From the NCBI RefSeq assembly GCF_002220775.1, contig NZ_CP019685.1, positions 868,001 to 932,000 of the forward strand: DNA of 64,000 bases, given 5' to 3'. Of this stretch, positions 2,297-25,607 are shown one piece after another. Below the pieces are notes generated by a model. It had not been told where the DNA came from. It made no database searches and saw only the letters and a program-made list of their open reading frames with translations. Within the stretch, counting starts at the first letter, position 1; every line of letters starts with the position of its first letter. Position numbers and translations under genes: made by a program. Source of the DNA: Campylobacter sputorum. Its GTDB lineage: Bacteria > Campylobacterota > Campylobacteria > Campylobacterales > Campylobacteraceae.

Positions 2297-2327
<31 letters not shown>

Positions 2328-4451: not shown

Positions 4452-4503
4452 CAAGGCTTTAACTTAATAAAATAAATTTCAAAATCTATAAGATGCCTTG
4501 CTA
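4449..4503 (+). terminator. Inverted repeat after cas6
   Basis: TAGCAAGGC (4449-4457, including the cas6 stop codon) pairs perfectly with GCCTTGCTA (4495-4503) across a 37-base loop. There is no T tract directly after it, so it may weaken or process the transcript rather than act as a classical terminator. Confidence 0.4.
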
Positions 4504-4568
4504 AAAGGTAGAATTATAGCAAAATTTCAATTTATGTCAAAATATATAACTTAATATAATAATAAAAT

Positions 4569-4597
4569 TTGACAAAGAAATTACTTTTTGCTATAAT
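4569..4597 (+). promoter_or_regulatory. Consensus sigma-70 promoter of the cas8b-cas1 operon
   Basis: TTGACA (4569-4574) and TATAAT (4592-4597) are both perfect and separated by exactly 17 bp; the cas8b start codon follows 26 bases later with AAGGAAG as the ribosome-binding site. Such a consensus pair is unusual in Campylobacter, where -35 boxes are usually poor. The interference and adaptation genes are therefore probably well expressed. Confidence 0.8.
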
Positions 4598-4623
4598 TCA
4601 AAAAATACAAAAAGGAAGCAATA

Positions 4624-6381: not shown

Positions 6382-7309
6382 AAAAGAGATTTTATTTTTT
6401 TGGGATGGTGAAAATTTTAATCCAAACGGAGATATGTTAAATGATAATGCTCCTAGACTGGATGAAGAAACAAGTTTAGCAGAAGCTACTGATGTTAGAA
6501 TAAAAAGAACAATAAGAGATGAACTAATTAGAGAAAATCCGGATCAGATTTTTATAAAAACATACGAAGATAAAGACGGAAAAATACTAGATGCAAAAAC
6601 AGCAATGAGAGAGGAAACTAAGCTAAATATAGATATCAAAAAAGCAAATAAAGATGAAATCATAGAAGCAATTTTATCAAATTTTATAGATATTCGTGCT
6701 TTTGGTGGAGTATTGCCAATTTCTGATAACAAAGAAAAAGAAGTTAAAACAAAAAGTGTAAGCTTTACTGGTCCAGTTCAGTTTAGAATCTCAAAATCTT
6801 TACATAAAGTTTCAGTAAAATACATAAAAGGTGCTGGTGCATTTGCAAGCGGAAGCGATAAAGATGCAAAAACATTTAGGGAAGAGTCTTTTTTAGACTA
6901 CGCATTTTTTGCAACTTATGGAATTTTTGATAACAATAATGCTAAAAATACAAATTTTAGCGAAGATGATGCTAAAAAAATTCTAAAAGCTCTTTGGAAT
7001 GGAAGCAAAAATTTAACAACTCGCACAAAAATAGGGCAAATACCTAGATTTTTACTAATCATATCTTATAAAAATAATACCTTTACAGGAGATCTAAACA
7101 ACTTAGTTTCAATAATTTCACAAAAAGAAGATGAGGCAATAAGAAGTATAAAAGATTTTAAAATCAATTTTTCAAATTTAAAAGAAAAACTTGAACTATA
7201 TAAAAATGATATAGAAAAGATTGAATTCATCAGCGATTTTAACTTTAAAAATTTAAATGAAGATGAATTTGATAAAAGCTGGGTAGAAATAGATGTTAAT
7301 AGCCTTTGA
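6371..7309 (+). CDS. cas7: Cascade backbone protein Cas7 (Csh2)
   Basis: A 312-residue Cas7/Csh2 protein, which forms the helical backbone on the crRNA. The N-terminal FFWDGENFNPNGD (residues 9-21) is the family's start motif, followed by DVRIKRTIRDEL (about residues 41-52) and the FGGVLP stretch near residue 116. Length is typical (about 290-320). AAAGGAG lies directly before the first of two consecutive ATG codons, so the start could be 6371 or 6374. It overlaps both the preceding cas8b and the following cas5, as expected of a tightly coupled Cascade operon. Confidence 0.93.
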   Translation: MMLKKEILFFWDGENFNPNGDMLNDNAPRLDEETSLAEATDVRIKRTIRDELIRENPDQIFIKTYEDKDGKILDAKTAMREETKLNIDIKKANKDEIIEAILSNFIDIRAFGGVLPISDNKEKEVKTKSVSFTGPVQFRISKSLHKVSVKYIKGAGAFASGSDKDAKTFREESFLDYAFFATYGIFDNNNAKNTNFSEDDAKKILKALWNGSKNLTTRTKIGQIPRFLLIISYKNNTFTGDLNNLVSIISQKEDEAIRSIKDFKINFSNLKEKLELYKNDIEKIEFISDFNFKNLNEDEFDKSWVEIDVNSL

Positions 7310-7997
7310 TTTATGGGGAGATTATGCGCATTTTAGCCATCCTGCGACAATTTATTCATCTCTTACTTATCCAGTGCCGCCAAAAACAGCCATAATGGGA
7401 CTTTTGGGAGCCATAATAGGGCTAAAAGAGTATGAAAAGCTTGGAGATTTAAAATATAGCGTTAAACTAAACGCATCCTTAAAGAAAAAAACTATGATTT
7501 TTAATGGTATAAAAATGGCTCTTAGCTCAAGTATGAAATTAGCTGATGGTTACCAAGATGCATCTCAAAAAAAACAGTTTTATAGAGAGCTAATTTGCGA
7601 GCCAAACTATACCATTTATCTAAATTTAGAAAATTTAGATAAATACTTTCAAGATCAAATTTATAAAAATATTAAAGAGCATAAAAGCGTATATACACCA
7701 TATCTTGGCATAAATTTTTGCCTTGCTGACTTTAAATTTAAAGAGATTAAAAACTTTAACAAAATAGAAGATGAAAAAATCTATGTTTCTAGCTTTGTTT
7801 TAGAAAACGATTTTATCTTTGAAAAAGATAATTTTAGTGCCAAACTCTCATCTTACACTATGCCTTGTGATGTAGAAAACAATAGAATCTTTAAAGAGTT
7901 TAAAAACTTCATCATAGAAATAAACTTAGGCAAACTTCTTGCTAAAAATAGTGGTGAAATTTACGAAATCAATGACGAAAGACTCTATTTTGTTTGA
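7293..7997 (+). CDS. cas5: Cascade subunit Cas5 (type I-B)
   Basis: A 234-residue Cas5h-type RAMP protein that binds the crRNA 5' handle. The N-terminus shows the Cas5 pattern: a hydrophobic beta strand (LIAFDLWGDYAHF), then SLTYPVPPKTAIMGLLGA (about residues 24-41), the conserved segment shared by Cas5 families. The gene overlaps cas7 by 17 bp and cas3 by 26 bp, so expression depends on coupling. Nothing in it looks broken. Confidence 0.92.
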   Translation: MLIAFDLWGDYAHFSHPATIYSSLTYPVPPKTAIMGLLGAIIGLKEYEKLGDLKYSVKLNASLKKKTMIFNGIKMALSSSMKLADGYQDASQKKQFYRELICEPNYTIYLNLENLDKYFQDQIYKNIKEHKSVYTPYLGINFCLADFKFKEIKNFNKIEDEKIYVSSFVLENDFIFEKDNFSAKLSSYTMPCDVENNRIFKEFKNFIIEINLGKLLAKNSGEIYEINDERLYFV

Positions 7998-10176
7998 TGA
8001 ATTTCTATCTCATCCAAATAAAATCTTCATAAATCACATTTTAGGAATGCTTTATGAAAACGATGCCACACTAGAAAAACAGGTTAAAATTTATCACGAT
8101 ATTGCAAAACTTAAAAATAGTTTTCAAATTTACATAAGAGATAAATCAAAAGTAAAAAATAAAGAGCACTCTTTACTAAGCGGATATTTTTTTGTTTCAA
8201 ATAGCGACTTTGATCAGCTAGATACACTTTTTGGATTTTTAGCAATAATTTCTCATCACACAGATGTAAAAGATTTTTATTCCTTAAAAGTTTCAAACAA
8301 AAACTTTGGTGATTACTACCAAAACAGTATAGAGTTTAGCTTTGCAAATGAAGTTATAGAAAATGCAAAAACTTTTAGTGAATTTAAAGATATTAAATTT
8401 GATAATATACACGAAAAAGCTAAAAAATTATCAAGATATTTACTATTATCAGAATTTAAGCATAAATTTAATTACGATGATTTTATAAAATTTAAATCTA
8501 TTTACTCAAATTTAATCTTTAATGACAAATTTGAAGCAATTTTTAGCTCTAAATTTACTCCTTCAAAGCCCATTCAATTAAAACCGCTTGAAAAATATAT
8601 AAAAAATTTAGTAAAAGATGAAGATAGAAATCTACCTGAAAATAAAAAAAGAGAAGATTTTAGACAATTTGTTTTATCTAATTTTGATAAAAACCACTCC
8701 TTATACACATTAACAGCTCCAACAGGCTATGGCAAAACATTAACTGCTCTAAATTTCGCTCTTAAATTTAAAAAAGAAAGAGTTATTTTTACTCTTCCTT
8801 TTACATCCATCATAGATCAAACTTACGACACTTTCTCGAAAATCTATCCTGATTTGGAAGTGCAAAAAATCCACCATAAAACTATAGTCCAAAATGATGA
8901 AAACGAAGATATAGATTTAGATAGTGATAGATATTCAAAAGTTAAATTTATGCTAAACTCATTTAGTGCTGATATAAATATCACAACAATGTATCAACTA
9001 ATTTACGCCATGTTTGGTAACTCAAACAAAGACAATGTCAAATTTCACAGCCTTAAAAATAGTGTTATTATAGTTGATGAAGCTCAAGCTTTGCCATATA
9101 AATTTAGACAAGATTTTATCAAGCTTTGTGAAATTATTTCAGAAAAATTAAACTCTGTTTTCATACTTATGTCAGCAACAATGCCAGTTATCAATAGCCC
9201 TGAATTTAAAGAAATTTCAAACCTAGACTATTTCAAAAAACAAAATAGATATAAAATAAAATATTTAGATAAAGACGAAGATGAACTCATAGAACAAATC
9301 AAAATAGTTGCCAAAGATAAACACACCCTTGTCGTTGTAAATACTATCAAAAAAGCTCAAGAGCTATACTTTAAATTTCAAGATGAATTTAAAACATATT
9401 CAATAAATGGCTACATGACTGACAATCATAAATTGCAAATCATAGGTGATATTAAAAAACGGCTTAAAAATAAAAATGATAAATCTAAAAAAATACTTCT
9501 CATTTCAACCCAGTCTATTGAAGCTGGTGTGGATCTTAGCTTTGAAGTTGGATTTAGAGAAATAAGTCCTATAAGCTCTATTATACAAACAGCAGGTAGG
9601 GTAAATAGAAGCGGGGAATTTGGTGATGGTGTTTTATATGTTTTTAATAACATTAGCAAATTTGAAGCTTTAATATATGGAGATTTGCAAAATATAAGCG
9701 ATAGCATCTTTAAAATCTTAAAACAAAAAGAGATAAAAGAGAGTGAAATTTTAGAATTTTCTAATATTTATTTTAAAAAAATTCATGAAAATTTAGAAAA
9801 TTTATATATAGAAAATGAGATTTCAAAACTTGAATTTGAAACTATAAATAGCAAAATAGATGAAATTATGAAAGAAAATAGATATAAAAAACTTATTATT
9901 ATAGAACCAAAGCCTAATTTTATTTCGGATTTGGAGCAAGTTTTCTTTAATTATAAAAATGATGATGAGTTTAAAATCAAAGAATTTAGAAACAATATCA
10001 TTAAAAAAATTATAAAATACGGCGTCAATATAAGCCAAAATGACATTAAAAATTTTGGCACTCGCCTAGAAAAAGTAAAATTTTGTGATATTTCTTACTT
10101 GCCTTTTAACGCACCAGAATATGATAAAAATGTAGGAATTTTAAAAGCTAACTCCAAAGAAATGGCATTTTCATGA
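7972..10176 (+). CDS. cas3: Cas3 nuclease-helicase (HD domain fused to DExD/H helicase)
   Basis: A 734-residue Cas3, the effector that unwinds and degrades target DNA. The N-terminal HD nuclease has NHILGM, HDIAK (about residues 42-46), an EHSLLSG segment and SHHTD near residue 93. The helicase has Walker A APTGYGKT (about 248-255), DEAQ (about 369-372), MSATMP (about 399-404) and the C-terminal QSIEAGVDLSF and QTAGRVNRSG motifs. All key motifs are present, so it should be active. I chose ATG 7972 over an upstream in-frame TTG at 7939, because the HD domain begins just after it; no strong ribosome-binding site is visible and coupling to cas5 is likely. Confidence 0.93.
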   Translation: MTKDSILFDEFLSHPNKIFINHILGMLYENDATLEKQVKIYHDIAKLKNSFQIYIRDKSKVKNKEHSLLSGYFFVSNSDFDQLDTLFGFLAIISHHTDVKDFYSLKVSNKNFGDYYQNSIEFSFANEVIENAKTFSEFKDIKFDNIHEKAKKLSRYLLLSEFKHKFNYDDFIKFKSIYSNLIFNDKFEAIFSSKFTPSKPIQLKPLEKYIKNLVKDEDRNLPENKKREDFRQFVLSNFDKNHSLYTLTAPTGYGKTLTALNFALKFKKERVIFTLPFTSIIDQTYDTFSKIYPDLEVQKIHHKTIVQNDENEDIDLDSDRYSKVKFMLNSFSADINITTMYQLIYAMFGNSNKDNVKFHSLKNSVIIVDEAQALPYKFRQDFIKLCEIISEKLNSVFILMSATMPVINSPEFKEISNLDYFKKQNRYKIKYLDKDEDELIEQIKIVAKDKHTLVVVNTIKKAQELYFKFQDEFKTYSINGYMTDNHKLQIIGDIKKRLKNKNDKSKKILLISTQSIEAGVDLSFEVGFREISPISSIIQTAGRVNRSGEFGDGVLYVFNNISKFEALIYGDLQNISDSIFKILKQKEIKESEILEFSNIYFKKIHENLENLYIENEISKLEFETINSKIDEIMKENRYKKLIIIEPKPNFISDLEQVFFNYKNDDEFKIKEFRNNIIKKIIKYGVNISQNDIKNFGTRLEKVKFCDISYLPFNAPEYDKNVGILKANSKEMAFS

Positions 10177-10670
10177 TTTTTACAAAAGAAGAGATCACAG
10201 GTACTTTGGTAAATTACTACACAACTTGTAAAAGAGAAGCTTGGCTGTATTCTAGAAAAATTCACGCACGACAAGATGATGAAAATATGCTAATTGGAAA
10301 AGCCTTAGCTGATTTAAGGGAAAATTTGCACGATTTCCCATACTCAAACCTTAAATTTGATAAAATTGCAAAGCAAAGTGGTCACTACATCATAACCGAA
10401 TATAAAAAATCTCTAAAAAACGAAAACGCCGCTAAAATGCAGCTTCTTTTTTATATCTACACTCTTAAAACCGCTCTAAATTTAAAGCAAATTTATGGAA
10501 AAGTAATAAGTGGTAAAAAAGTTATCGCCATTGATGATAGCGATGAGAATTTTAAGCTTATAAGAGAGCTTTTGGATGAAATGAGTGAGTTTTTAAGCCT
10601 TAAAACTCCACCAAAGGCAGCTAAATGTAAATTTTGTAAAAATTGCGCTTACAATGACTATTGTTTTTAA
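10173..10670 (+). CDS. cas4: Cas4 RecB-like nuclease with iron-sulfur cluster
   Basis: A 165-residue Cas4 that, with Cas1-Cas2, trims prespacers and selects PAM and orientation. One cysteine near residue 19 (TCKREAW) and the C-terminal CKFC..C.....C group (about residues 151-164) are the four cluster ligands. ITEYKKS (about residues 74-80) carries the E-x-K nuclease motif. It starts by ATGA overlap with cas3 and is followed directly by cas2 and cas1, the standard I-B adaptation set. Confidence 0.92.
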   Translation: MIFTKEEITGTLVNYYTTCKREAWLYSRKIHARQDDENMLIGKALADLRENLHDFPYSNLKFDKIAKQSGHYIITEYKKSLKNENAAKMQLLFYIYTLKTALNLKQIYGKVISGKKVIAIDDSDENFKLIRELLDEMSEFLSLKTPPKAAKCKFCKNCAYNDYCF

Positions 10671-10679
10671 GGGAAATTT

Positions 10680-10958
10680 ATGTATATTATTTTGTTTTAT
10701 GACATCTCAAATAGCGAAGAAAAAGAGAAAAATAATTCAAACCGCGTAAGAAAACTTGTAGAAAAATATATCCCAAGAGTGCAATTTAGCGTCTATGAAG
10801 GCGAGATTAGAGAAAGTGACTACAAAAAGCTAACCGCCCATCTCAAAAAGCTCATCCACGCCAAATTTGACTCTATAATCATCTATAAATTTGATAAGCA
10901 AAGTTACACTAAACGCGAAGTTATAGGTATAGATAAAAATGAACCACTTTTTAGTTAA
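10680..10958 (+). CDS. cas2: CRISPR adaptation protein Cas2
   Basis: A 92-residue Cas2 that bridges two Cas1 dimers in the spacer integrase. The N-terminal YIILFYDISN gives the ferredoxin-like first strand with the conserved Asp at residue 8, and VQFSVYEGEI (about residues 34-43) is the family's second hallmark. Length is normal. GGGAAATTT precedes the ATG as a ribosome-binding region. It lies nine bases before cas1. Confidence 0.93.
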   Translation: MYIILFYDISNSEEKEKNNSNRVRKLVEKYIPRVQFSVYEGEIRESDYKKLTAHLKKLIHAKFDSIIIYKFDKQSYTKREVIGIDKNEPLFS

Positions 10959-10967
10959 AGGAGATTT

Positions 10968-11960
10968 ATGAAAACAGATAGAACACATTTTTTGCTAAGC
11001 AGTGGAAAACTTTATAGAAAAGATAACAATATTTATTTTGATAAATATGATGAAGATGGCTTGATTTTAAACACAAAAATCCTACCCATAAACGCTATCA
11101 ATGAAATTTATATCCTTGGCAAAGTTGAGTTAGATACCTATACTATGGCGTTTTTAAGCACGAATAATATCTTGCTTCATATATTTAGTCAGCATGGAAG
11201 TTTTCGTGGAAATTTCTATCCAAACTCGCCAAATTCAGTAAATAAAAGCGGCTTTGTGCTTTTAAATCAAGTAAGAACTTTTGACGATGAGATAAAAAGA
11301 GTAGCAATCGCTAAAGAAATAACCAAAGCTAGGATGATAAACTCTATAAATAACTGCACAAAAAGAGGCGTTAAATTTGAAGAAGATGGGCATCTTAAAG
11401 CTCTAAAAAATGCCCAAAATATAGCCCAAATTATGGCGTGCGAAGGGGCTTTTGCAAAGGAATATTTTATAAAATGGAACGAAATCATAAAAAATCAAAA
11501 AAGCTTTAAATTTATCGCTCGCTCAAAACGCCCACCAACTGATAAAATCAACACTTTTATAAGCTATGTAAATACTAGAATTTATAATGTTTGCTTAAGC
11601 GAAATTTATAAAACCGAGCTTGATCCTAGGATTTCGTTTTTACACGAGCCAAATTACAGGTCGCTTAGCTTGCATCTTGATTTGGCTGAGATTTTTAAGC
11701 CTGTTTTAGGGGATAATTTGATTTTTAATATGCTAAATAAAGATGAAATCACAGCAAAAGACTTTAAAACTGATGCCGGAAGGATAAGGTTTACAAACGA
11801 AGCTGTGCAAAAAATAGAGTTAAATATGATAAAAGCCCTTACTTCTCAGGTGAAATTTGAAAATCAGTTTTTAACTTATAGGCAAATAATTAGGCGTGAA
11901 GCAAATCAGATAAAAAAGTGCATTTGTGAGAATTATCCTTATGAAGGGTATGTTGATTAG
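10968..11960 (+). CDS. cas1: CRISPR adaptation endonuclease/integrase Cas1
   Basis: A 330-residue Cas1. The conserved C-terminal active-site region is present: CEGAFAKEYF (Glu ligand, about residues 154-163), then SFLHEPNYRSLSLHLDLAE (about residues 223-241) with the His and Asp ligands. GGAGATTT precedes the start. It is the last gene of the operon, and the array leader begins directly after it, so cas transcription probably runs toward the array. All adaptation residues look intact, so spacer uptake should be possible. Confidence 0.94.
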   Translation: MKTDRTHFLLSSGKLYRKDNNIYFDKYDEDGLILNTKILPINAINEIYILGKVELDTYTMAFLSTNNILLHIFSQHGSFRGNFYPNSPNSVNKSGFVLLNQVRTFDDEIKRVAIAKEITKARMINSINNCTKRGVKFEEDGHLKALKNAQNIAQIMACEGAFAKEYFIKWNEIIKNQKSFKFIARSKRPPTDKINTFISYVNTRIYNVCLSEIYKTELDPRISFLHEPNYRSLSLHLDLAEIFKPVLGDNLIFNMLNKDEITAKDFKTDAGRIRFTNEAVQKIELNMIKALTSQVKFENQFLTYRQIIRREANQIKKCICENYPYEGYVD

Positions 11961-12143: not shown

Positions 12144-12770
12144 GTTAAAATTTAATCCTATGGATTTTGAAACCTAGGCTACTTTGGAGAGCCATAGAGA
12201 TACTTGGGAAGGTTAAAATTTAATCCTATGGATTTTGAAACCAAAGAAGTAGAAGTAAGCTATATGTTCCTCTTATAGTTAAAATTTAATCCTATGGATT
12301 TTGAAACCTTTTATGTGATCTATTAGTTGAAAATAGCTTTCATTGTTAAAATTTAATCCTATGGATTTTGAAACAAGCTATCAAACACACTATCTGTTTT
12401 TTCTTTTGTGTTAAAATTTAATCCTATGGATTTTGAAACTCAAAAACTGCGTATCAAACCATAATGAATTGGAAAAGGTTAAAATTTAATCCTATGGATT
12501 TTGAAACTGTAGATAGGCTTAAGTTCTATAAAGATAATCCAGAGTTAAAATTTAATCCTATGGATTTTGAAACTGCCAGTTGCTGCGACTTCAGGGCTTT
12601 TTCCAAGACTGTTAAAATTTAATCCTATGGATTTTGAAACAAATGAAAAATATCAACTAAAGGGTAGAGCTTTGTCGTTAAAATTTAATCCTATGGATTT
12701 TGAAACGAGCGGGAGCGGGTTATGAAAAACTGCCTTGAACGTTAAAATTTAATCCTATGGATTTTGAAAC
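12144..12770 (+). CRISPR. CRISPR array, 10 identical 30-bp repeats and 9 normal spacers
   Basis: Repeats begin GTTAAAATTT and end GGATTTTGAAAC. They start at 12144, 12212, 12278, 12345, 12410, 12478, 12544, 12611, 12677 and 12741 and are identical to one another. The nine spacers are 34 to 38 bp. The repeat is of the I-B kind, matching the adjacent cas genes. I found no obvious match of these spacers elsewhere in the window by eye. After the tenth repeat the array does not end: the next repeat comes 7467 bp later, beyond a block of conjugation genes. Confidence 0.97.
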
Positions 12771-13030
12771 GCATTTGTCATATCAACCATTTGCTTTTCT
12801 ATACTCTCATTCTTTAAAAGCTCTCTATGATTAATTAAAAGCCTTTGTTTTAGCTCATCATTCTCAACCACTTTATCTACTTGAGTTTTTCTTATCTGCT
12901 CGTAGTTTGTATGGTCTTTTCGTTTAGCTGTCTAACTCTACTGATTAATGCCGTCTTCGCCACTACTACTCCACACTCCAGCCAAAAGAAATTCTACTGA
13001 AAAAATAAAAACCAAAAGTATCTTTTTCAT
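12771..13030 (-). pseudogene. Broken VirB5/TrbJ-like exported protein gene
   Basis: The minus-strand start at 13030 gives a signal peptide (MKKILLVFIFSVEFLLAG) but the frame stops after about 30 codons. Coding sense continues in a second frame (VVAKTALISRVRQLNEKTIQ) and then a third (NYEQIRKTQVDKVVENDELK, and onward to QMVDMTN), ending in the CRISPR repeat. So there are two frameshifts and the 3' end meets the repeat. A small exported, helical protein at this place in a T4SS cluster suggests a VirB5/TrbJ-like pilus protein, but that is inference from composition and context. Confidence 0.6.
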
Positions 13031-13371
13031 TTTTCAAAGTATCCTTTTTCGTTTTCTTTGGTATTTAATATCCCTTGAAGCTTGTTTATAACATCTTGAT
13101 TAAATACTATTTGTTTTTCTAAAACCGCTTGAAGTACTACTAACTTTTGATTTTGAATAAGTATGTTTTTATTCTCCACTTCTAATTCCTGGTGTGCCTT
13201 ATGAATTTTTGCCACAATCTCATTAATCTTTTCTGCTGTCTGCTTGTCTAGTGCTTCAAATTTTTGCACCGATACTTGTCCTAGCTGTTGCCCTAGTCCT
13301 TGATCACGGCAACCACCACAAGCAAAAACATAGATCGCACTAAAAACCATTAACACAATAATCTTTTTCAC
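13027..13371 (-). CDS. Small exported protein of the T4SS segment
   Basis: A 114-residue protein with an N-terminal signal peptide (MKKIIVLMVFSAIYVFACGG). The cysteine at the cleavage region could be lipidated, though the lipobox is poor. The rest is helical and rich in Gln, Lys and Glu (coiled-coil-like, about residues 35-105). Its stop overlaps the start of the next broken gene (ATGA) and its start overlaps the upstream gene, so it belonged to an operon. The size and position would suit a small VirB7-like or VirB5-like periplasmic factor, but I do not recognise a family. Confidence 0.6.
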   Translation of the reverse strand: MKKIIVLMVFSAIYVFACGGCRDQGLGQQLGQVSVQKFEALDKQTAEKINEIVAKIHKAHQELEVENKNILIQNQKLVVLQAVLEKQIVFNQDVINKLQGILNTKENEKGYFEK

Positions 13372-13856
13372 TGTTTATCTCCTCCTAAATTCTCCTTACA
13401 CTGATCCGCAAATTTTTCAAGTAAATTCTTACAAAACACCATAATATCATCCAATTCACTATTGCAAATTATTTTAAAAGGCAACTCCACCTTAGCAAAT
13501 ATAGATAACTTTATAAGGTCTCTATTCTCTACTTTTAACGCCTCTTCTTCATTGCCATAATGTCCTCCGCCGTAATACTCTATAACCAATAAAGGCTCGG
13601 CTGTTTTTTTGCTAGTTATCAAAAAATCAACGGATAGTTTATTAAAATCCGGATAAGCAATATCACTACTTATAAAAGCCGATAAATTTACTTGAGAATT
13701 TATATTTACAAGTCCACTAATGCCAAGCTCATTAATCGCTTTTATCAAAGCACTATAAACCTTTATTTCTTCTTGATTTAATAGGCTTTTTTTACTAAAT
13801 GTATCCTTTTGAATTCTTACTACTGTAGAGTTTTCAATGTTTTTTTTATCTATCAT
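13368..13856 (-). CDS. DUF2726-type nuclease-like protein
   Basis: A 162-residue cytoplasmic protein. The pattern LLNQEEIKVYSALIKAI (about residues 25-41), then VDFLITSKKTAEPLLVIEYYGG (about 75-96, written in part) and HYG resembles DUF2726, a restriction-endonuclease-like fold in which a D...E core lies on two strands. A catalytic role is not shown. It is embedded in the conjugation operon, overlapping its neighbours by four bases on each side, and could handle DNA or defend the element. Confidence 0.55.
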   Translation of the reverse strand: MIDKKNIENSTVVRIQKDTFSKKSLLNQEEIKVYSALIKAINELGISGLVNINSQVNLSAFISSDIAYPDFNKLSVDFLITSKKTAEPLLVIEYYGGGHYGNEEEALKVENRDLIKLSIFAKVELPFKIICNSELDDIMVFCKNLLEKFADQCKENLGGDKQ

Positions 13857-14224
13857 TCTTTAATCTTTTTTGCCGAATTTAGCTCTAGCATTTCACGCAA
13901 TTTTTTCTCAACTCTAATATTAAAAGCAACCAAGCTCCTAAACACAAATCCGTCAAAATGCTTTCCGTCTTTGGTGTAGTTAAACCAGTATTTGTAGTAA
14001 AAAATAATAGATATGAGATATAGAGTAATTACGATATCCAAGCTATATCCGCTCAGTTTATAAAGTAGGTAGGCAATTATCATAGCAATTAAATTAAAAC
14101 CACTGGTAAAAAGATAAACTATGCCAAGTTTCAATCTATACTGCTCTTTATTGACTATATTTAAAAGTTTCTCTTTGCGTCTTTGTTCCTTAAGAGCCTC
14201 ATCAGTTGAAAAATCATTTGCCAT
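13853..14224 (-). CDS. Two-helix membrane protein of the T4SS segment, unknown function
   Basis: A 123-residue protein with two hydrophobic helices (about residues 34-55, LGIVYLFTSGFNLIAMIIAY, and 62-80) between charged termini. No known domain is recognised. It overlaps the downstream gene by four bases, so it is part of the same operon. Small inner-membrane proteins of this kind are common in T4SS clusters (VirB3-like or mating-pair factors), but a specific assignment is not supported. Confidence 0.55.
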   Translation of the reverse strand: MANDFSTDEALKEQRRKEKLLNIVNKEQYRLKLGIVYLFTSGFNLIAMIIAYLLYKLSGYSLDIVITLYLISIIFYYKYWFNYTKDGKHFDGFVFRSLVAFNIRVEKKLREMLELNSAKKIKE

Positions 14225-14226
14225 AC

Positions 14227-14487
14227 TTATTCCTTGTAGTATTTTTTCTCTGCGTCAATGATAAAATTATTAAAAAGCAAGTGTTTAAATTTGTTTAACT
14301 CAAATATAAAATTTGCCTTGCTAATCAATATATCTTTCATAATTTCTTTTTTATTGATGATAGTAATATACTGATTTTCGTGTGTAGGATATACCTCTGT
14401 ATGTTCTTTTGTAAGACTACTTAAAGCACCTGGAGAATTTGCAAAACAAATACCGCTCATTAGGGCAATAAATATAAGTTTTCTCAT
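14227..14487 (-). CDS. Small exported protein, unknown function
   Basis: An 86-residue protein with a short signal peptide (MRKLIFIALMSGICFAN). The mature part of about 70 residues has no cysteines and no family I recognise. Its start overlaps the stop of the PIN-domain gene (ATGA-type spacing), so it was co-expressed. Likely periplasmic. Confidence 0.5.
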   Translation of the reverse strand: MRKLIFIALMSGICFANSPGALSSLTKEHTEVYPTHENQYITIINKKEIMKDILISKANFIFELNKFKHLLFNNFIIDAEKKYYKE

Positions 14488-15170
14488 TGTTTATCTCTTT
14501 TAATTTCTGCCTTATTTGTATCCACTGGAGTATTTGAAAAAATTTCATTAAACTCTTTTTTTAAATCACTTATACTTTTATCTGCTTTATCTTGCGTGGG
14601 AATATAATCAGGTATGTTAGGGTCAGTTCTTTTTAGTGGTATATCAAGCTTAGGAAATTTCTTATCATTCGTGTAAATAACATCACAGCCATTTTCTTTA
14701 GCTATAAAATACTGCAAAACATCTTCTAAATCATTGCTTGGATTATCTCTGCAATACTTTATAGCCTCTATTGTAGCAATAGACGTGGTAGGCAATAGCT
14801 CAACAACACCATTATTACACATTGAGTATAATGCCTCTATAACTAGCTTTTTGTTATTATCTTGTTTTGGTTCTTTTAAAATTTCATCTATAAAAAACTT
14901 AGCTACTTCAAAAGCATTGTTTTTATTTAGTTTATCATTAAAAACACTGGCTTGATTGCGTAAAGATATCATCTGCTGGATAAAAAACTGATTTTCTTTA
15001 TAAGCATTACTTGCTATGTAATATATAGTTGGTATAGAAGTGGATGAAACTGTCATTGCAACTTTATCTTTAATAAGATTATTGAATTCTTGTATTGATA
15101 GTTTGCTGTATATCCTATCCTCCAACATCAAATCACAAACAAAATTTATATCTAAAAAGACTTTTTACAT
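14484..15170 (-). CDS. PIN-domain (VapC-like) toxin gene with a stop at codon 2, probably inactive
   Basis: Read from ATG at 15170, the protein would begin M-stop-K-V-F-L-D-I-N-F-V-C-D, where VFLDINFVCD is the classic PIN start with the first catalytic Asp. Codon 2 is TAA where AAA would be expected. The open part then continues for over 215 codons, with the second PIN block DLEDVLQYFIAKENGCDVIYTND (about residues 137-159). Translation could only restart at TTG 15131 or ATG 15128, which loses the first Asp. PIN toxins are RNases; this one is probably dead. The C-terminal tail (about 55 residues past the PIN fold) is charged and unusual. Confidence 0.6.
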
Positions 15171-15171
15171 T

Positions 15172-15417
15172 CTAAGCCCTTAACCTAGATAACGCCCTAA
15201 CCTCTTTGATTTGCTCGTTCGTTATATCCACGCCCTTAATAACACCTATAAAATCCTTAGCTTTTTCCAATTTTTCTTCTACTTCATTATCAACATTTTT
15301 TGTATCAACTGAATTTTTTATATTATTAACTTTACTAACCAGCCACCTAGCAAAATCTACCAAATCTTCACGTTCTTTTGGTATATCAAGATGAAAACTT
15401 ATAAATTCTTGCCTCAT
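15172..15417 (-). CDS. Probable antitoxin of the PIN toxin pair
   Basis: An 81-residue, highly charged helical protein ending one base before the toxin start. The start at 15417 is supported by a strong TAGGAGG eight bases upstream; the open frame extends further upstream to 15519 but that part is basic, overlaps the previous gene and has no start signals. Size, order (antitoxin first) and spacing suit a type II toxin-antitoxin pair. No DNA-binding motif is recognised, so the role is by context. Such pairs commonly stabilise plasmids. Confidence 0.5.
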   Translation of the reverse strand: MRQEFISFHLDIPKEREDLVDFARWLVSKVNNIKNSVDTKNVDNEVEEKLEKAKDFIGVIKGVDITNEQIKEVRALSRLRA

Positions 15418-15472
15418 TTTATTCCTCCTAAATCTACGTGAGCCATGTTTAGCTCTAATAATAAGACATCTC

Positions 15473-15883
15473 TTACTTTTCCTTTTTCTCTGCTTCTTTT
15501 TTTCTAGCTTCCAAATCAACTACTTTAGCTTTATAAAGTTCCACATCTCTTTCTTTCTCTTGCAAATTTTCTTTGGCTTTTTCTATTTTTTGAGTGTTTT
15601 TACTTTCGGTTGCTATCTCAAGCTCTTTTTTGGCTTTGTCTAAATCTTTAAGAGACTTATTGTATCTTGCTTTGGCTCTCTTTATCATTCCCTCATCATA
15701 ACCTACATCACGTGGAGTTTTATCAAGAATTCTATTTAAATCTCCCTTTCCGCCTGGCATATCATAAGAGGGTTTAGTAATTTTACAATTAGTCAATGCT
15801 CTCATTTCAGGAGTGCATTCCTCAGCAAATGCAAAATTTGTCAAGATTGCTACAGCTAACCCAATTGAGCTTAACCTCTTCAT
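15473..15883 (-). CDS. Exported coiled-coil protein with a KPSYDMPGGKG motif
   Basis: A 136-residue protein with a signal peptide (about residues 1-20), an early cysteine pair (ECTPEMRALTNC), then KPSYDMPGGKGDLNRI (about residues 37-52) and a long charged coiled coil (about 65-136). The motif KPSYDMPGGKG recurs word for word in the larger exported protein at 18176-19339 of the same cluster. AAGGAGAAATAAA before the ATG is a clear ribosome-binding site. It lies in the T4SS operon, so a periplasmic or mating-pair role is likely; the family is not known to me. Confidence 0.6.
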   Translation of the reverse strand: MKRLSSIGLAVAILTNFAFAEECTPEMRALTNCKITKPSYDMPGGKGDLNRILDKTPRDVGYDEGMIKRAKARYNKSLKDLDKAKKELEIATESKNTQKIEKAKENLQEKERDVELYKAKVVDLEARKKEAEKKEK

Positions 15884-15992
15884 TTTATTTCTCCTTATGC
15901 TTTTAATATCTTAATTATATCATATTCTTTGTCTAAATTGCTATCTTCTTAATATAGAATATAAGAAAATAGCAATCAACTACTATTTTTTA

Positions 15993-18167
15993 TTATAGCT
16001 GGAAGCTATATTTTTCCAGTCTTTGTCCTAACTGCTCTGTTGCAAAACTTGCATTGCTATCATTAAGACCTATCATTTTAAATACCCAAGCTGGAGCGTG
16101 TATTATTAATTTCCACATAATATACACTGACCCTATAGCACCAACTATTTTTAAAAGTATCTCAAAAACACCAATCATAACTGTCATCCAAAATTGATTT
16201 TGAATTTCCATTATCATACTAAGTTGTTCTACTGCATACATCATAAAAATATCATTAAACAAGCCATATATAAACAGTGCAAAATATATAAAAATAACTA
16301 TAAGCACTGGCTTTAAGAATAAGGCTATACCAGTTACAAGAAAATCCGCTACTTTATTTGTCCTGCCAGTAGTTAGCGAAAAAGCCGTAACAAACGGTGC
16401 TATATAAAAATACTTAGTCAACTCTATAATATAACCCAAGAATGCTAAGGCACTTGCAACTATTGATACAGTTAATGGGATGTAGTTTAATATAGATGTA
16501 TATAAAACTACCACTATAACTATTGCCAAAGCTGATGAAGCAAACGAGATAACTTTTTCAATGGCTATTTTACCAAGTGCGGTTTTTCCAAAAGGTATAA
16601 AATTTGCTATTTTTTCAGCTGTCTCTGGTTTTACTGAAAGCATATTGACTACATCTCCAGCACCAGGCAAAATCATATAAGTCATTTTACCCATAATCCA
16701 GCCGACAGTATCTCCAGCTACCACATCCATTTTATCTTTTACATTTGCACCCCAGCTCCACCAACTATCTTTATTACGCTCTATCATATTTTCATCTGCT
16801 CTATCTTTGCTAGACCTCTCAATATTATTTTTATTATCCTCTACAATCTGAGAGGCAACCGAGTTATCTTCTACAACAGATATATTTTCAACCAAGACCG
16901 CAAGTGCTGGAATAATAGTAGAATTTATCCAACCAAGCTCATTATTTCTACTATTGACACCCTCATTAATCTGCTTTAAAGTAGCCTCTAGTTCATTGTT
17001 TCTAATATTTTTCTTAACTGCTCCAAGCATTAAATCATTCTGTCTTTGTAGAGTATAAAAAGCTCTCATTTTATGTTCTATAAACCGACATCCTGAAAAA
17101 TGATACTTCTCGTTTTTCTTATCCAAATTTAACATATCTGTCCCGTCTGAGGGATTTAAAAAACTAGTTATGTTAGGAAACCTCTCTTTACACTCTTTAT
17201 ACCCAAGCTCATAAGCTTTTATGATATTTACATAGTTCTTTTTATTCTCTTCAAGTGCTTTTTCTTTATCTACAGTATAAGCACCTACACTACCGTAAAG
17301 CTTTTGCATATAACTTTCACTTCCAAACACACCAGCTCTATCTGCAAAATCATTACTTAAACTTGCACCAGCCCTCATAATCTTTTGGATAGGCGTTGCA
17401 TTCATTCCACTATCCTCAGGGATAGGGATAAAAAATGTTCCAAACACAATTACTGGCACTAAAAGAGTATTTAAAATTTTCTGATTTTCATTTGCTCTTT
17501 CAATCTTATTGTTAAAATTTTTAACAGCCATAACTGAAAAGAAAAAACCTCCTATAACGACTAAAAGCATATATTGTAAAGCGGAATACACACGGCTCAT
17601 ATTGCTATATATATTGCCATAATATGCCAAGTTAGCCTTATTGAAACTATCCGCCGTTGCTGTAATTTCTTCTCTGTTTTTTACCTCTGCTATATTTGTT
17701 CCATATATTGCCGTAGGATTTTTAAGCTCTATTACTCCAGTTACCTTAGTTCTTTCAAAATCAATTAAACTAGGGTCAAGCGTTACCATTCCAGCTAGAA
17801 ATTTTGTAAGTGTTAGTTGCCCTGGTTGGTATTTTAAATCCGAAGCGTCATATTTTTTATTATAGCTTGATAAACCACTCATAGGAACTGTTTGATTTGT
17901 TTGGTCGATACAAGTTTTATTTTTAGTATTGGCGTTTAACCCTAAAGAGGCTCTTAAATCATCTCTTGGATAAATGCTACATTGAGTAATACCACTTTTA
18001 GGGTCAAACGCTGTAACTAGAGCAACAAATTTATTACTTACTTTTCTACACTGTGGCTTACAAGTAGTGGCGATCGTTTCATCGTTTTCCATAAAAATTT
18101 CAGTCTCGCTAGGGTCTGCAAATACAAAACCCATAAAAACCATTAAAAGTAAAACAACTTTTTTCAT
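15993..18167 (-). CDS. Polytopic T4SS membrane protein (TrbL/VirB6/DotA-like)
   Basis: A 724-residue protein with a signal peptide, a cysteine-containing periplasmic region (about residues 20-195), a hydrophobic helix near residue 200 (LQYMLLVVIGGFFFSVMAV), another near 235, a large soluble loop (about 260-520) and a cluster of five or six membrane helices in the last 200 residues. This layout is that of large T4SS inner-membrane components (VirB6/TrbL, TraG N-terminal, DotA/TraY). The exact family cannot be set by eye. AGGAATTATA precedes the ATG. It appears intact, unlike the genes at the segment ends. Confidence 0.6.
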   Translation of the reverse strand: MKKVVLLLMVFMGFVFADPSETEIFMENDETIATTCKPQCRKVSNKFVALVTAFDPKSGITQCSIYPRDDLRASLGLNANTKNKTCIDQTNQTVPMSGLSSYNKKYDASDLKYQPGQLTLTKFLAGMVTLDPSLIDFERTKVTGVIELKNPTAIYGTNIAEVKNREEITATADSFNKANLAYYGNIYSNMSRVYSALQYMLLVVIGGFFFSVMAVKNFNNKIERANENQKILNTLLVPVIVFGTFFIPIPEDSGMNATPIQKIMRAGASLSNDFADRAGVFGSESYMQKLYGSVGAYTVDKEKALEENKKNYVNIIKAYELGYKECKERFPNITSFLNPSDGTDMLNLDKKNEKYHFSGCRFIEHKMRAFYTLQRQNDLMLGAVKKNIRNNELEATLKQINEGVNSRNNELGWINSTIIPALAVLVENISVVEDNSVASQIVEDNKNNIERSSKDRADENMIERNKDSWWSWGANVKDKMDVVAGDTVGWIMGKMTYMILPGAGDVVNMLSVKPETAEKIANFIPFGKTALGKIAIEKVISFASSALAIVIVVVLYTSILNYIPLTVSIVASALAFLGYIIELTKYFYIAPFVTAFSLTTGRTNKVADFLVTGIALFLKPVLIVIFIYFALFIYGLFNDIFMMYAVEQLSMIMEIQNQFWMTVMIGVFEILLKIVGAIGSVYIMWKLIIHAPAWVFKMIGLNDSNASFATEQLGQRLEKYSFQL

Positions 18168-18175
18168 TATAATTC

Positions 18176-19339
18176 CTATCTTATAAGTGCTTCGACTTCA
18201 GCTCTTGCACTAGCTACATCAAACACCGTATTCATAATAACTACTTTTTCAGCGGTTAAGGAGATAAGGTCTTTTTTCTTTTCAAGATTAGCTTTAATAT
18301 CTTTAACAATATTTGCCTCAGACAACATTTGATTATTTATTTTTTCAACATTTTTAACTTTTATATCTTGCCTTAAAATATCAATATACTCTCTTGTAGG
18401 AGTAGCTAAAAACTCATCATTAAAAGCTCTTGATAGTTCGTTTTTCATTATTTCAATTGTTTCAGTTGTTAAAGCCCTATGAGCCTCATTTACTTCACTA
18501 CTAACAATAGAACTAGGGTCATTACCACTAATTTTTCCTACTTTATTTGATAGCTTTTTAGCAAACCTATAAGGGGAATTTTCTATACTAAATTTTATCT
18601 CTGCATTAACTAAAATATCTCGTTTATTTGTATATTCTTTTATATCTTTAGGGGCGGTTGCCACTACATCTTCTATAGTAACATCTTCTAAATTTTTACC
18701 TTTTGCGTCTCCAACAGTTTTTATTAAATTTAATTTTGACTGGTCGTTTTGCATAAGGGCGGTATTTGCGGAACTTTTAGTTTTGATTATCCTATCAAGG
18801 CTACCCTTTCCGCCTGGCATATCATAAGAGGGTTTTTTATCTTCTGAGCTACCACCAGTAAGTATGCTGGTATCAGTGTTTCCAACTCCACCTATTCCAG
18901 TATATTTTTCTTTGTTTTCACAAAAAGCTTTTAAAGGACTTGTGTCCTGCGACATCCTTTTACTTTTCTTCTGTAGTCCTGGTAAATTTGGTGCTAGACT
19001 ACACACATCAAAACCAGCTTCCATATCAGGGATTAAGCTACAAATATCAAGTTTAGCTTGAGGGATAGTATAACATTGCCCTATTGGGCTTCCTTGCACT
19101 TTATCCAAAACTTTATTTAGCTTATCGAGGTTACTATTAATTCCACTTAAGCTACCTCCTAAAATACTATCCAAAACACCCACAGCCTTACCTATCGTGC
19201 TATCATAAATGCCTTTACCTTGATTGTAAAGGTCTTGCCCTTGCTTTGTAACACCGTCAATAGTATTACCAACTTCATCTAGAGGATTTGCGAATGCCAA
19301 ATTTGCTACAACTAAACTAAATAAAGCCAACCTTTTCAT
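18176..19339 (-). CDS. Large exported protein of the T4SS segment with a KPSYDMPGGKG motif
   Basis: A 387-residue protein starting at ATG 19339, with AAGGAGAAG upstream and a signal peptide (MKRLALFSLVVANLAFAN). It has a Gly-rich region, four cysteines between about residues 90 and 120 and a fifth near 145, the motif KKPSYDMPGGKGSLDRI (about residues 168-184) and a helical C-terminal half. The reading frame is also open upstream into the coupling-protein remnant, but that junction is an A8 tract and the signal peptide marks the real start. The motif is shared with the 15473-15883 protein, so the two may work together in the periplasm. Family not recognised. Confidence 0.6.
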   Translation of the reverse strand: MKRLALFSLVVANLAFANPLDEVGNTIDGVTKQGQDLYNQGKGIYDSTIGKAVGVLDSILGGSLSGINSNLDKLNKVLDKVQGSPIGQCYTIPQAKLDICSLIPDMEAGFDVCSLAPNLPGLQKKSKRMSQDTSPLKAFCENKEKYTGIGGVGNTDTSILTGGSSEDKKPSYDMPGGKGSLDRIIKTKSSANTALMQNDQSKLNLIKTVGDAKGKNLEDVTIEDVVATAPKDIKEYTNKRDILVNAEIKFSIENSPYRFAKKLSNKVGKISGNDPSSIVSSEVNEAHRALTTETIEIMKNELSRAFNDEFLATPTREYIDILRQDIKVKNVEKINNQMLSEANIVKDIKANLEKKKDLISLTAEKVVIMNTVFDVASARAEVEALIR

Positions 19340-20237
19340 ACTCTTCTCCTTATTACAATTTTTTTTAATCTCTATCATCACGCCACCTTTTTTATCCATT
19401 TGCAATTTCTTATAAAGCTTATATGTATCGGCTATAAATTGTTTTTTCGGTATATACTCGGTTATCGGTATAGGTTCTTCCATTTTCTTTAACTCACATG
19501 ATATCTTCTTGCCATATCTTGCCAAACTGCTTTCAGTAGTTGCCGTTGCCCTATACATTTTGCCGTCATTAAATACTAGCATTTCGCCGTTATTCATTCC
19601 GACTACCTGCTCGTGCTTGATAGCTGGTTCTTTTTCAACCTTATACCTATCTTCCGTGCCAATCTGCCCTTTTACGCCCTCTCTTCTATCGGAGTATTCC
19701 ATATCTATAAATTTTTGTTCTTCTACCATTTTTGCATATAGCTCAGTTGCTTCAGGATTAATGTTTTTCATCAAAATATGCGTTCCAGTGGTATCAAAAA
19801 TTTCACGTCTTTCCAAGCTCTCACTACCAACAACCTTTCCAACTGCGTCTATTTGAGACGGAGACTGAAAAAATAGGTATGATTGTGATACCTAAAGCTC
19901 TTGATTTACTCATAAGTCTACCAAAACCCTCGATAATGTAACTTCCTATCTCATCAAACCAACAAATAAAAGGAATTTTTGGCTCGTCCGCATTTTTTGC
20001 TTTTTCGGCAGCAACCCCTTTAATAAGCCCTAGAATTAGCTTTCCTAGCTGTTTTGGAGTTGTATCACTTGCCATAGTAGGAAGTGTTACAAAGATAAAT
20101 TTATTTCTCTGCACTGTCTCCCACATTGATATTGTAGGAGTTTGGGTGTTAAACACTCTTCCATAATCACTTTTTAAACTGGTAATTACTCCGATCCAGG
20201 CGGAGGCTGACATTGTGCTATCATAAGCCCCCTGTTC
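19340..20237 (-). pseudogene. VirD4/TraG-type coupling protein, 5'-truncated and frameshifted
   Basis: The upstream part (20237 to about 19850) reads QGAYDSTMSASAWIGVI then, further on, PFICWFDEIGSY, the Walker B region of T4SS coupling ATPases, and SRALGITIIPIF. The frame breaks at a run of six T (minus strand) near 19870; deleting one T restores IFQSPSQIDAVGKVVGSE, which joins the downstream frame (ERREIFDTTGTHIL and on). The N-terminal half, including Walker A, is missing because the gene runs into the CRISPR repeat at 20238. At its 3' end an A8 tract leaves the frame fused to the next gene. It cannot encode a working coupling ATPase. Confidence 0.75.
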
Positions 20238-20389
20238 GTTAAAATTTAATCCTATGGATTTTGAAATGTATTGAAAAAAAGTAGCAAAAAAAGGTATAAT
20301 CAGATTTAAATTTAATCCTATGGATTTTGAAACTGGGTGTATCGATGGTTTTTACTGGTTTTGCTATGGGTTAAAATTTATTTTGAAAT
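20238..20389 (+). CRISPR. Distal end of the CRISPR array: three decaying repeats, two spacers
   Basis: Repeats at 20238-20267 (last base T instead of C), 20304-20333 (changes at positions 1 and 4) and 20370-20389 (10 bp deleted from the middle, last base T). The two spacers (20268-20303, 20334-20369) are both 36 bp, the same size class as in the main array, and all repeats face the same way. Degenerate repeats mark the trailer end. This is best read as the continuation of the array at 12144-12770, interrupted by the 7.5-kb conjugation segment. Confidence 0.9.
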
Positions 20390-20469
20390 TTAAAGCAGAC
20401 ATTGAAATTAAAAATATAACAAAACAGAACAAAGAGAAGTTGAAAAAAGATAAATCAAAGAGCGTATAA
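20386..20469 (+). pseudogene. C-terminal remnant of a gene cut at the CRISPR repeat
   Basis: From the border of the degenerate repeat a frame reads KFKADIEIKNITKQNKEKL and on to a TAA at 20467-20469. The lysine-rich, helical reading looks like the last 27 or so codons of a gene whose front is missing. It is too short to identify. It shows that the DNA left of fic was also cut at a repeat. Confidence 0.35.
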
Positions 20470-20495
20470 GAAAAAGGTCTTATAAAATCGTAAAT

Positions 20496-20655
20496 ATGAA
20501 ATCAGACTATTTAAACGCTTTAAAAGTTAAATTTAGAGCTAAAAAAATAAGTTAGAGAAATAAGAGAACTAGAAAGACAATATAGAGAGAAAACAACAGC
20601 CAAACTTATGAACGAATGGAAAGAAAAATCAAATCTAAGAAAAAATAGGAGATAA
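20496..20655 (+). pseudogene. Small frameshifted gene directly upstream of fic
   Basis: ATG 20496 gives MKSDYLNALKVKFRAKK and stops; a second frame overlapping it reads REIRELERQYREKTTAKLMN and on to NRR with a TAA at 20655. Together they suggest one small charged helical protein of about 50 residues with a frameshift at the A-run near 20545. It ends three bases before fic. A small gene before fic could be an antitoxin, but the inhibitory S-x-x-x-E-G motif is not here; it is inside Fic itself. Function unknown. Confidence 0.35.
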
Positions 20656-20658
20656 ATA

Positions 20659-21417
20659 ATGAATGAAAATTTGGCATTAAAAATTTTACTTGATGAATAT
20701 AATAACGGCATTAAAAATGGACTTTATCATTATACACAGATAGTATTTGCATATAATTCAAACAGAATAGAGGGCAGTAAATTAAGCAAAGACCAAACTA
20801 GATATATTTATGAAACAAATTCTTTATTATCCCAAAAAGACGAGATTATAAAAATAAATGATATTATAGAAACAAAAAATCATTTTAAAGCATTTGATTT
20901 TATTTTAGATAATTATAATAAACCACTAGACATAGCACTTATCAAAAATATACATTCTATAGTAAAAAAAGATACAAAAGATAGTATTATAGGAGATTTT
21001 AAAAAAAGAGTAAACTTTATAGGAGATACCAAAACAACTAACCCAAAAGATGTAGAAAAAGAGATAGAAAAATTATTAAATTTATATAACTCTTTAGAAA
21101 ATATAGTCATAGAAGATATTATAGATTTTCATTATAAATTTGAGAGTATACACCCTTTTGAAGACGGCAACGGAAGAACAGGCAGATTAATAATGTTTAA
21201 AGAATGTTTGAAAAATAATATAACGCCTTTTATTATTGATGATGAACATAAATTATTTTATTATAGAGGTTTAAAAGAATACGAAAACACAAAAGGTTAT
21301 TTAGTAGATACTTGTTTTAGCTGTCAAGATAAATATCAAGAAATCCTAAACGAGCAAGGAAATCTATTATCTTTAAAATTTGATTATGAAAAAGAATACC
21401 GAAAAGATGATGTTTAA
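20659..21417 (+). CDS. fic: Fic-domain protein (AMP-transferase family, self-inhibited type)
   Basis: A 252-residue Fic protein. The catalytic motif HPFEDGNGRTGR (about residues 171-182) is complete (HPFxxGNGRxxR), so transfer of AMP to target proteins is likely. The N-terminal SNRIEGSKLS (about residues 34-43) matches the class II inhibitory motif S-x-x-x-E-G, so the protein carries its own brake. AGGAGATAAATA precedes the ATG. The TAA stop lies inside the variant CRISPR repeat at 21412-21441, so the last residues may be lost or altered. Fic proteins often travel with T4SS on Campylobacter plasmids and islands, which fits the conjugation genes next door. Confidence 0.92.
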   Translation: MNENLALKILLDEYNNGIKNGLYHYTQIVFAYNSNRIEGSKLSKDQTRYIYETNSLLSQKDEIIKINDIIETKNHFKAFDFILDNYNKPLDIALIKNIHSIVKKDTKDSIIGDFKKRVNFIGDTKTTNPKDVEKEIEKLLNLYNSLENIVIEDIIDFHYKFESIHPFEDGNGRTGRLIMFKECLKNNITPFIIDDEHKLFYYRGLKEYENTKGYLVDTCFSCQDKYQEILNEQGNLLSLKFDYEKEYRKDDV

Positions 21418-21441
21418 ATTTAATCCTATGGATTTTGAAAC
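21412..21441 (+). CRISPR. Solitary CRISPR repeat after fic
   Basis: A full 30-bp copy of the array repeat with one change (position 4 is T). The same position-4 change is in the repeat at 20304, so it belongs to the trailer end of the same array. It begins within the fic coding sequence and supplies its stop codon. The distance from the previous repeat is 1022 bp, so fic occupies what would be a spacer position. Confidence 0.85.
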
Positions 21442-23217: not shown

Positions 23218-23300
23218 TCTTACCAAATACGGATGTCTGAGTGCAGATAACGGATATTTTCTTTAATCTGTTTTCCATATTCAGTTCTGTATTATCTAAA

Positions 23301-23851: not shown

Positions 23852-23859
23852 TGTACTCT

Positions 23860-25607
<1,748 letters not shown>

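What the first reader, a model, noticed from the sequence alone, without database searches (positions are those of the whole stretch)
20390..21441. A fic gene bracketed by CRISPR repeats, ending inside one
A second oversized interval (1022 bp) in the same array holds the tail of a cut gene, a small frameshifted gene and fic. The stop codon of fic is in the repeat at 21412, which shares a position-4 change with the repeat at 20304. So capture at spacer positions may have happened twice, and the cargo here is an intact-looking AMP-transferase with a self-inhibition motif. Fic and T4SS genes travel together in Campylobacter mobile DNA, so both pieces may come from one plasmid type.
Basis: partly seen in the sequence, partly recalled or inferred. 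Interest (0 to 1): 0.8.

Follow-up and report, generated by a model that had tools for sequence, protein, structure and literature searches.

The report
Plasmid fic gene inside CRISPR array
A bacterial immune-memory array (CRISPR) in a Campylobacter-type genome carries, at two places where short memory 'spacers' should be, large pieces of conjugative-plasmid DNA, one with a complete-looking fic enzyme gene whose stop codon lies in the CRISPR repeat; most likely the array recombined with the plasmid it had memorised.

Summary
A type I-B array (repeat GTTAAAATTTAATCCTATGGATTTTGAAAC) has two oversized intervals: 12771-20237 (7,467 bp) and 20390-21411 (1,022 bp). The second is bounded by a repeat with a 10-bp internal deletion (20370-20389) and the repeat at 21412, whose first bases supply the last codon and stop of fic. 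The 'cut tail' and 'small frameshifted gene' are one broken 3' gene end, homologous to a gene of Campylobacter T4SS plasmids pCORI-1/pCCORG; the 7.5-kb interval is collinear with the same plasmids, flush with the repeat at its right end. Fic is a class II, CdFic-like protein with intact catalytic and inhibitory motifs; its fold is complete by about residue 230, so the repeat replaced only an unconserved tail. A sister species' closely related system holds consecutive spacers against one T4SS plasmid (PAM TTA/TTC). Best explanation: recombination between pairs of plasmid-derived spacers and the plasmid replaced one array unit by the plasmid segment between the protospacers, twice. The PAM test is split: passed at the fic right end (about 22% by chance), failed at the T4SS right end. 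Cas1-Cas2-linked capture of long DNA remains a rival. New variant of a known kind (spacer-target recombination).

The parts
3765..11960 (+). type I-B cas operon: cas6, cas8b (TM1802 family), cas7 (Csh2), cas5b, cas3, cas4, cas2, cas1b
   Evidence: NCBIfam/Pfam matches; sister species G001 carries close homologues in the same order
12144..12770 (+). leader-proximal array: 10 perfect 30-nt repeats, 9 spacers of 34-38 nt
12771..20237 (-). first oversized interval: fragment of a T4SS plasmid (genes on - strand, incl. 724-aa VirB6/TrbL-like protein and the cut TraM-recognition gene)
   Evidence: collinear with pCORI-1 (6003-14336) and pCCORG; last base before the repeat at 20238 still inside TraM homology (28/29 nt in pCORI-1); left end resolved only to within about 21 nt; the VirB6/TrbL label is by plasmid position and membrane-protein look, not a family hit
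20238..20267 (+). repeat (last base T)
20268..20303 (+). ordinary 36-nt spacer
20304..20333 (+). repeat with A1 and T4
20334..20369 (+). ordinary 36-nt spacer
   Evidence: sequence
20370..20389 (+). degenerate repeat lacking ATCCTATGGA (the palindromic centre), last base T
   Evidence: exact match of the remaining 20 nt
20390..20658 (+).
   Evidence: tblastn, C-terminal block 33-53% identity, E down to 1e-10
20659..21417 (+). fic, 252 aa, class II CdFic-like; S34-NRI-E38-G39 inhibitory motif, H165PFEDGNGRTGR catalytic motif; last codon and stop in the repeat
   Evidence: Pfam PF02661 E=2e-18; key motif columns invariant or nearly so among 30 relatives; model pLDDT 90, best PDB matches 4x2c/d/e; dN/dS about 0.08 against nearest relatives
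21376..21411 (+). last 36 nt of the fic interval: putative former spacer, preceded by the PAM-like TTA (21373-21375)
   Evidence: PAM TTA/TTC from sister-species protospacers; chance of TTA at one of five offsets about 22%
21412..21441 (+). last repeat of the array (T4), holding the fic stop

Best explanation
The fic interval is a fragment of a conjugative (T4SS) plasmid captured at a spacer position of a chromosomal type I-B array, the second such capture in this array. Most likely mechanism: primed adaptation had stored several spacers from one plasmid type side by side; the plasmid later recombined with two of them (double crossover, or integration at one spacer followed by deletion through the other). 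This replaces 'spacer-repeat-spacer' by 'spacer end ... plasmid segment ... spacer end', so plasmid DNA abuts the two outer repeats and any gene crossing the border is cut there. The product loses the middle repeat and cannot make the second guide, and the first guide's target abuts a repeat instead of a PAM, so it escapes self-targeting. fic was carried in with the broken end of the gene upstream of it and stops in the neighbouring repeat. SHOWN: array, degenerate repeat, plasmid homology, exact flush border at the right end of the T4SS interval, complete Fic core, plasmid-matching adjacent spacers in the sister array. INFERRED: the recombination steps, that the interval ends were spacers, and any present role of Fic.
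For: Plasmid homology runs to the base before the repeat at 20238 and to within about 21-22 nt of the left borders of both intervals, so no intact spacer remains beside the inserts there. Both intervals are sub-fragments cut inside genes, not whole plasmids. No sequence of 12 nt or more is shared between the interval ends. Sister species G001 (cas genes in the same order, repeat one base different) has consecutive spacers s25, s26 (exact), s27 (3 mismatches) and also s35 (1-2 mismatches there, exact on another plasmid) on the same C. fetus T4SS plasmid, next to TTA/TTC for three of the four: several neighbouring spacers against one T4SS plasmid do occur in this system. TTA lies exactly 36 nt from the right end of the fic interval. 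Precedent for spacer-target recombination is cited in PMC8616872.
Against: The right end of the T4SS interval has no TTA/TTC 34-38 nt inside it, against a canonical spacer there. The fic-side PAM could be chance (about 22%). No relative with the predicted precursor spacers was found; none of the window's own spacers matches the plasmids fetched. Flushness is proven at only one of four ends; the others lie in variable regions. Single assembly, no reads seen.
Confidence: 0.48

Rival explanations
1. Cas1-Cas2-linked capture: long plasmid DNA was joined to the repeat ends, either as an overlong prespacer or by repair of a half-site integration or break at a repeat border, duplicating a repeat as in normal spacer acquisition.
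For: Gives the same flush borders without needing spacer pairs; cas1, cas2 and cas4 are present; does not need a PAM inside the right end, which the T4SS interval lacks.
Against: Spacer length is tightly set elsewhere in this and sister arrays (34-38 nt); both inserts are internal, not leader-proximal; a 7.5-kb prespacer has no precedent known to me.
Confidence: 0.22
2. Illegitimate recombination put plasmid DNA into the old, decaying end of the array, and the borders look flush partly because homology cannot be read closely there.
For: The distal repeats are degenerate; three of four borders are resolved only to 20-58 nt; another decayed remnant of a related plasmid lies elsewhere in the genome (C1:1315737-1318302).
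Against: One border is exact; the outer repeats keep their full length apart from the internal 10-bp deletion; two inserts leave no spacer remnant long enough to be recognised.
Confidence: 0.2
3. Integration by homologous recombination between the array and a CRISPR repeat or mini-array carried on the plasmid, or an integrase that targets repeats (as with prophages in CRISPR repeats).
For: Would give repeat-flanked inserts.
Against: Would insert a whole circle, but both inserts are sub-segments cut inside genes; no copy of the repeat core in viral contigs nor elsewhere in the genome; no integrase recognised among the ORFs of the intervals.
Confidence: 0.07
4. The locus is an assembly artefact.
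For: Reads not available.
Against: Single-contig genome of 99.98% completeness; the plasmid genes have diverged 10-40% from known plasmids and sit between repeats of this array only.
Confidence: 0.03

Closest known systems
[quoted passage not shown] 2019, cited in PMC8616872)
   Same: Homology between a spacer and its target serves for recombination between array and mobile element
   Different: There phages pick up CRISPR loci; here, if the model is right, the chromosome keeps plasmid segments between two spacer positions, twice in one array. Original paper not held; taken from the review and memory
Prophage integration into CRISPR loci (Varble et al. 2021; title seen only through citation searches, content from memory)
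   Same: Mobile DNA flanked by CRISPR repeats
   Different: Integrase-driven whole prophage; here cut plasmid fragments without a recognised integrase
CdFic, class II Fic of Clostridium difficile (PDB 4x2c, 4x2d, 4x2e)
   Same: Same fold (TM about 0.9 by target length), N-terminal inhibitory motif, catalytic motif
   Different: About 27% identity in the structural alignment; substrate unknown
fic genes on Campylobacter and Helicobacter plasmids (pHELV-1, H. cinaedi T36_P1; C. fetus fic1-4)
   Same: Plasmid-borne fic, next to T4SS genes in pHELV-1 and C. fetus elements (PMC5651007, PMC3887049)
   Different: Nearest plasmid homologues are 63-68% identical; none seen is bracketed by CRISPR repeats
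T4SS plasmids pCORI-1 and pCCORG
   Same: Source family of the T4SS interval and of the broken gene upstream of fic
   Different: pCCORG has a different Fic at that place; pCORI-1 lists none

Membership tests
Type I-B CRISPR-Cas | cas8b with Cas7/Csh2 and Cas5b | tested here: met
   (cas8b below NCBIfam cut-off but above the Pfam one; Csh2 above; Cas5b slightly below)
Type I-B CRISPR-Cas | cas1/2/4 and an array with regular spacers next to them | tested here: met
Class II Fic AMP-transferase | HxFx(D/E)GNGRxxR catalytic motif | tested here: met
   H165PFEDGNGRTGR; invariant columns
Class II Fic AMP-transferase | N-terminal (S/T)xxxE(G/N) inhibitory helix (definition as in PMC5651007) | tested here: met
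   S34NRIE38G39 at the end of model helix 22-37; E38 and G39 invariant
Class II Fic AMP-transferase | AMP transfer activity | not testable with these tools
   needs biochemistry
Spacer-target recombination product | Insert ends flush with repeats | tested here: inconclusive
   exact at one end; other three unresolved within 21-58 nt
Spacer-target recombination product | System stores spacers against the donor plasmid type | tested here: inconclusive
   shown in the sister species against C. fetus T4SS plasmids, not in this array
Spacer-target recombination product | PAM one spacer length inside the distal end of each insert | tested here: inconclusive
   met for fic (TTA at 36 nt), not met for the T4SS interval
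Integrase-mediated prophage or plasmid insertion in a repeat | Whole element with integrase | tested here: not met
   fragments cut inside genes; no integrase recognised among the ORFs
Casposon | Cas1 inside the mobile unit, terminal inverted repeats | tested here: not met
   no cas1 within the intervals; no shared or inverted 12-mers between the interval ends

The most novel reading that the evidence does not exclude
Adjacent spacers from one plasmid act as paired homology arms: the array repeatedly swaps a repeat for the plasmid segment lying between the two protospacers, so a CRISPR array works as a gene-capture site for the elements it targets, and the recombinant is favoured because it disarms self-targeting.
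Probability: 0.42. Interest if true: 0.75.

Novelty: new variant of a known kind. Interest (0 to 1): 0.52.

Why it matters
CRISPR arrays are normally seen as barriers to plasmids. If paired spacers serve as homology arms, the barrier is also a door: immune memory itself directs where plasmid genes, here a possible toxin-type fic, enter the chromosome. Priming, which places several spacers from one plasmid side by side, would make this recur and predict which segments are caught. It can be tested in laboratory strains and by scanning arrays for oversized, repeat-flush intervals.

Tried and rejected
Protospacers for the window's nine leader-proximal spacers in plasmids and phages: only chance-level hits. 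DNA search with the region upstream of fic in plasmids: AT-rich chance hits only; solved by a 34-aa protein query and then by homologous gene ends. Search for the repeat or for close relatives of the T4SS protein and Fic in viral contigs: nothing. Direct-repeat evidence for simple single-crossover integration: no shared end sequence, so rejected as a final state. The idea that the G004 fic also ends in a CRISPR-like repeat was dropped after reading the sequence. The idea that the CRISPR locus split an rRNA operon was dropped: no 16S homology precedes the other two 23S genes of this genome either. The window's own spacers show no match in the sister arrays beyond short words, the longest 13 nt. 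Papers: nothing found describing kilobase plasmid fragments at spacer positions, in an openly licensed library only.

Full report
WHAT IS THERE. The window (G000:C1:868001-932000, a 1.68-Mb single-contig Campylobacter-family genome) holds a type I-B cas operon (cas6-cas8b-cas7-cas5-cas3-cas4-cas2-cas1) followed by an array with the 30-nt repeat GTTAAAATTTAATCCTATGGATTTTGAAAC. The 25-nt core occurs 13 times, all here and nowhere else in the genome; shuffles give none. Ten perfect repeats (12144-12770) are followed by a 7,467-bp interval, repeats at 20238 and 20304, a degenerate repeat at 20370-20389, the 1,022-bp fic interval and a last repeat at 21412.

THE STOP CODON. fic runs 20659-21417; its last codon GTT and its stop TAA are the first six bases of the repeat. 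This is not special: read from its first base the repeat gives GTT AAA ATT TAA (or GTT TAA with the position-4 change), another frame also stops at once and the third is open. Any gene running into the repeat has a two-in-three chance of stopping there.

IS FIC TRUNCATED? Relatives lose similarity at residues 226-238 and then carry unrelated tails of different length. The AlphaFold2 model (30-sequence alignment of the window's protein and fetched loci) is confident to about residue 230 and poor after it (mean pLDDT 90.4; last blocks 68, 52, 45). So the core is complete and only an unconserved tail was replaced or cut. The protein matches CdFic (PDB 4x2c/d/e) best by profile and by fold, has the inhibitory motif S34NRIE38G39 and the catalytic motif H165PFEDGNGRTGR. 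Pairwise dN/dS to the nearest relatives is about 0.08; on the window branch 3 amino-acid changes could be polarised against 6 on the other branch, so there is no sign of relaxed selection, but the numbers are small. It is a class II Fic by sequence; activity and target are not known.

WHAT LIES UPSTREAM OF FIC. The segment 20390-20658 contains, in broken frames, the 3' end of one gene: its last 34 residues match a gene of G003 (53%), pCCORG (52%) and pCORI-1; an earlier block (MKSDYLNALKVKFR) matches the same homologues in another frame. In pCCORG this gene also overlaps the start of a fic gene, though of a different Fic. The public annotation calls it hypothetical.

THE 7.5-KB INTERVAL. It is collinear with pCORI-1 (6003-14336) and with pCCORG. 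At its right end homology to the TraM-recognition gene continues to the last base before the repeat (28 of 29 nt in pCORI-1). At its left end homology ends 21 nt before the repeat, in a region where all homologues differ. Both intervals are thus sub-fragments of conjugative plasmids, cut inside genes, with no recognisable spacer remnant at their edges. In pHELV-1 a 65% identical fic sits just upstream of a TraM-recognition gene, so fic and T4SS genes do share plasmids. That the two intervals came from one plasmid is plausible but not shown: on the pCCORG map they lie in opposite orientations, and their G+C differs (0.23-0.25 vs 0.33).

DOES THE SYSTEM STORE SPACERS AGAINST SUCH PLASMIDS? The one other species of the genus held here (G001) has closely related cas genes in the same order, a one-base repeat variant and a regular 40-repeat array without oversized intervals. 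Four of its 39 spacers match C. fetus T4SS plasmids; three are consecutive (s25, s26 exact; s27 with 3 mismatches) and all four occur on one plasmid, NZ_CP059438. The bases 5' of the protospacers are TTA, TTA, TTA/TTC and, for s27, ATG. This gives a provisional PAM and shows that adjacent spacers against one T4SS plasmid are real in this system.

MECHANISM. Recombination at two spacers from the same plasmid replaces spacer-repeat-spacer with the plasmid segment between the protospacers, flush with the outer repeats. It also removes the guide made from the second spacer and leaves the first target beside a repeat, which should spare the cell self-targeting. The model predicts a PAM one spacer length inside the distal end. 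The fic interval passes (TTA at 36 nt; about 22% by chance), the T4SS interval fails. I therefore put it at about 0.48, with Cas1-Cas2-linked capture (0.22) and unspecific recombination in a decaying array end (0.20) as rivals. A plasmid-borne repeat or a repeat-targeting integrase is unlikely because the inserts are fragments and no such repeat or integrase was seen.

KNOWN OR NEW. Spacer-target recombination between phages and CRISPR loci is published (cited in PMC8616872), and prophage insertion into CRISPR loci is known from citations. I found no account of kilobase plasmid fragments sitting at spacer positions, but the library holds openly licensed papers only. C. fetus reports describe CRISPR arrays, T4SS islands and fic toxin-antitoxin genes; the passages read do not describe the combination seen here.

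LIMITS. One assembly; no strain series; no donor plasmid closer than 60-90% protein identity; three of four borders not resolved to the base; PAM from four protospacers only.

Noticed in passing
window 1-3007, 3008-3627, 23141-25603: The CRISPR locus lies between a 23S rRNA unit and a 16S-tRNA-Ala-tRNA-Ile unit. The two other 23S genes share only about 620 bp of upstream DNA with this one and show no 16S homology in the 2.8-3 kb taken upstream of them, so 16S and 23S appear unlinked in this genome.
   Followed up: partly
window 1183-1560: An ORF inside the 23S gene looks like the four-helix-bundle protein often found in 23S intervening sequences (recalled, not tested).
   Followed up: no
window 23339-23636: Perfect 149-bp tandem duplication that includes the edge of tRNA-Ala.
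   Followed up: no
G000:C1:1315737-1318302 (L151): Second, decayed remnant of a related T4SS plasmid (TraM tail, and the N-terminal part of the gene whose 3' end precedes fic), not next to any CRISPR repeat.
   Followed up: partly
L010 and L034: Two other Campylobacter-family genomes carry an 81-83% identical fic in one chromosomal place, downstream of a short cut gene tail: apparently another landing of the same plasmid fic, without CRISPR repeats.
   Followed up: partly
L129 (G001 array): Spacers s15-s16 are repeated as s17-s18 (tandem duplication of two units); spacers s25-s27 and s35 target C. fetus T4SS plasmids with PAM TTA/TTC for three of four. An earlier C. fetus report had found no targets for its own CRISPR spacers (PMC3887049).
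   Followed up: yes
window 20238-21441: The four distal repeats alternate between two variants: A4 with final T (20238, 20370) and T4 with final C (20304, 21412); unexplained.
   Followed up: no
window 21442-23140: 1.7 kb of very A+T-rich DNA (G+C 0.21) between the array end and the tRNAs with almost no open frames; origin unknown, no match among fetched loci.
   Followed up: partly
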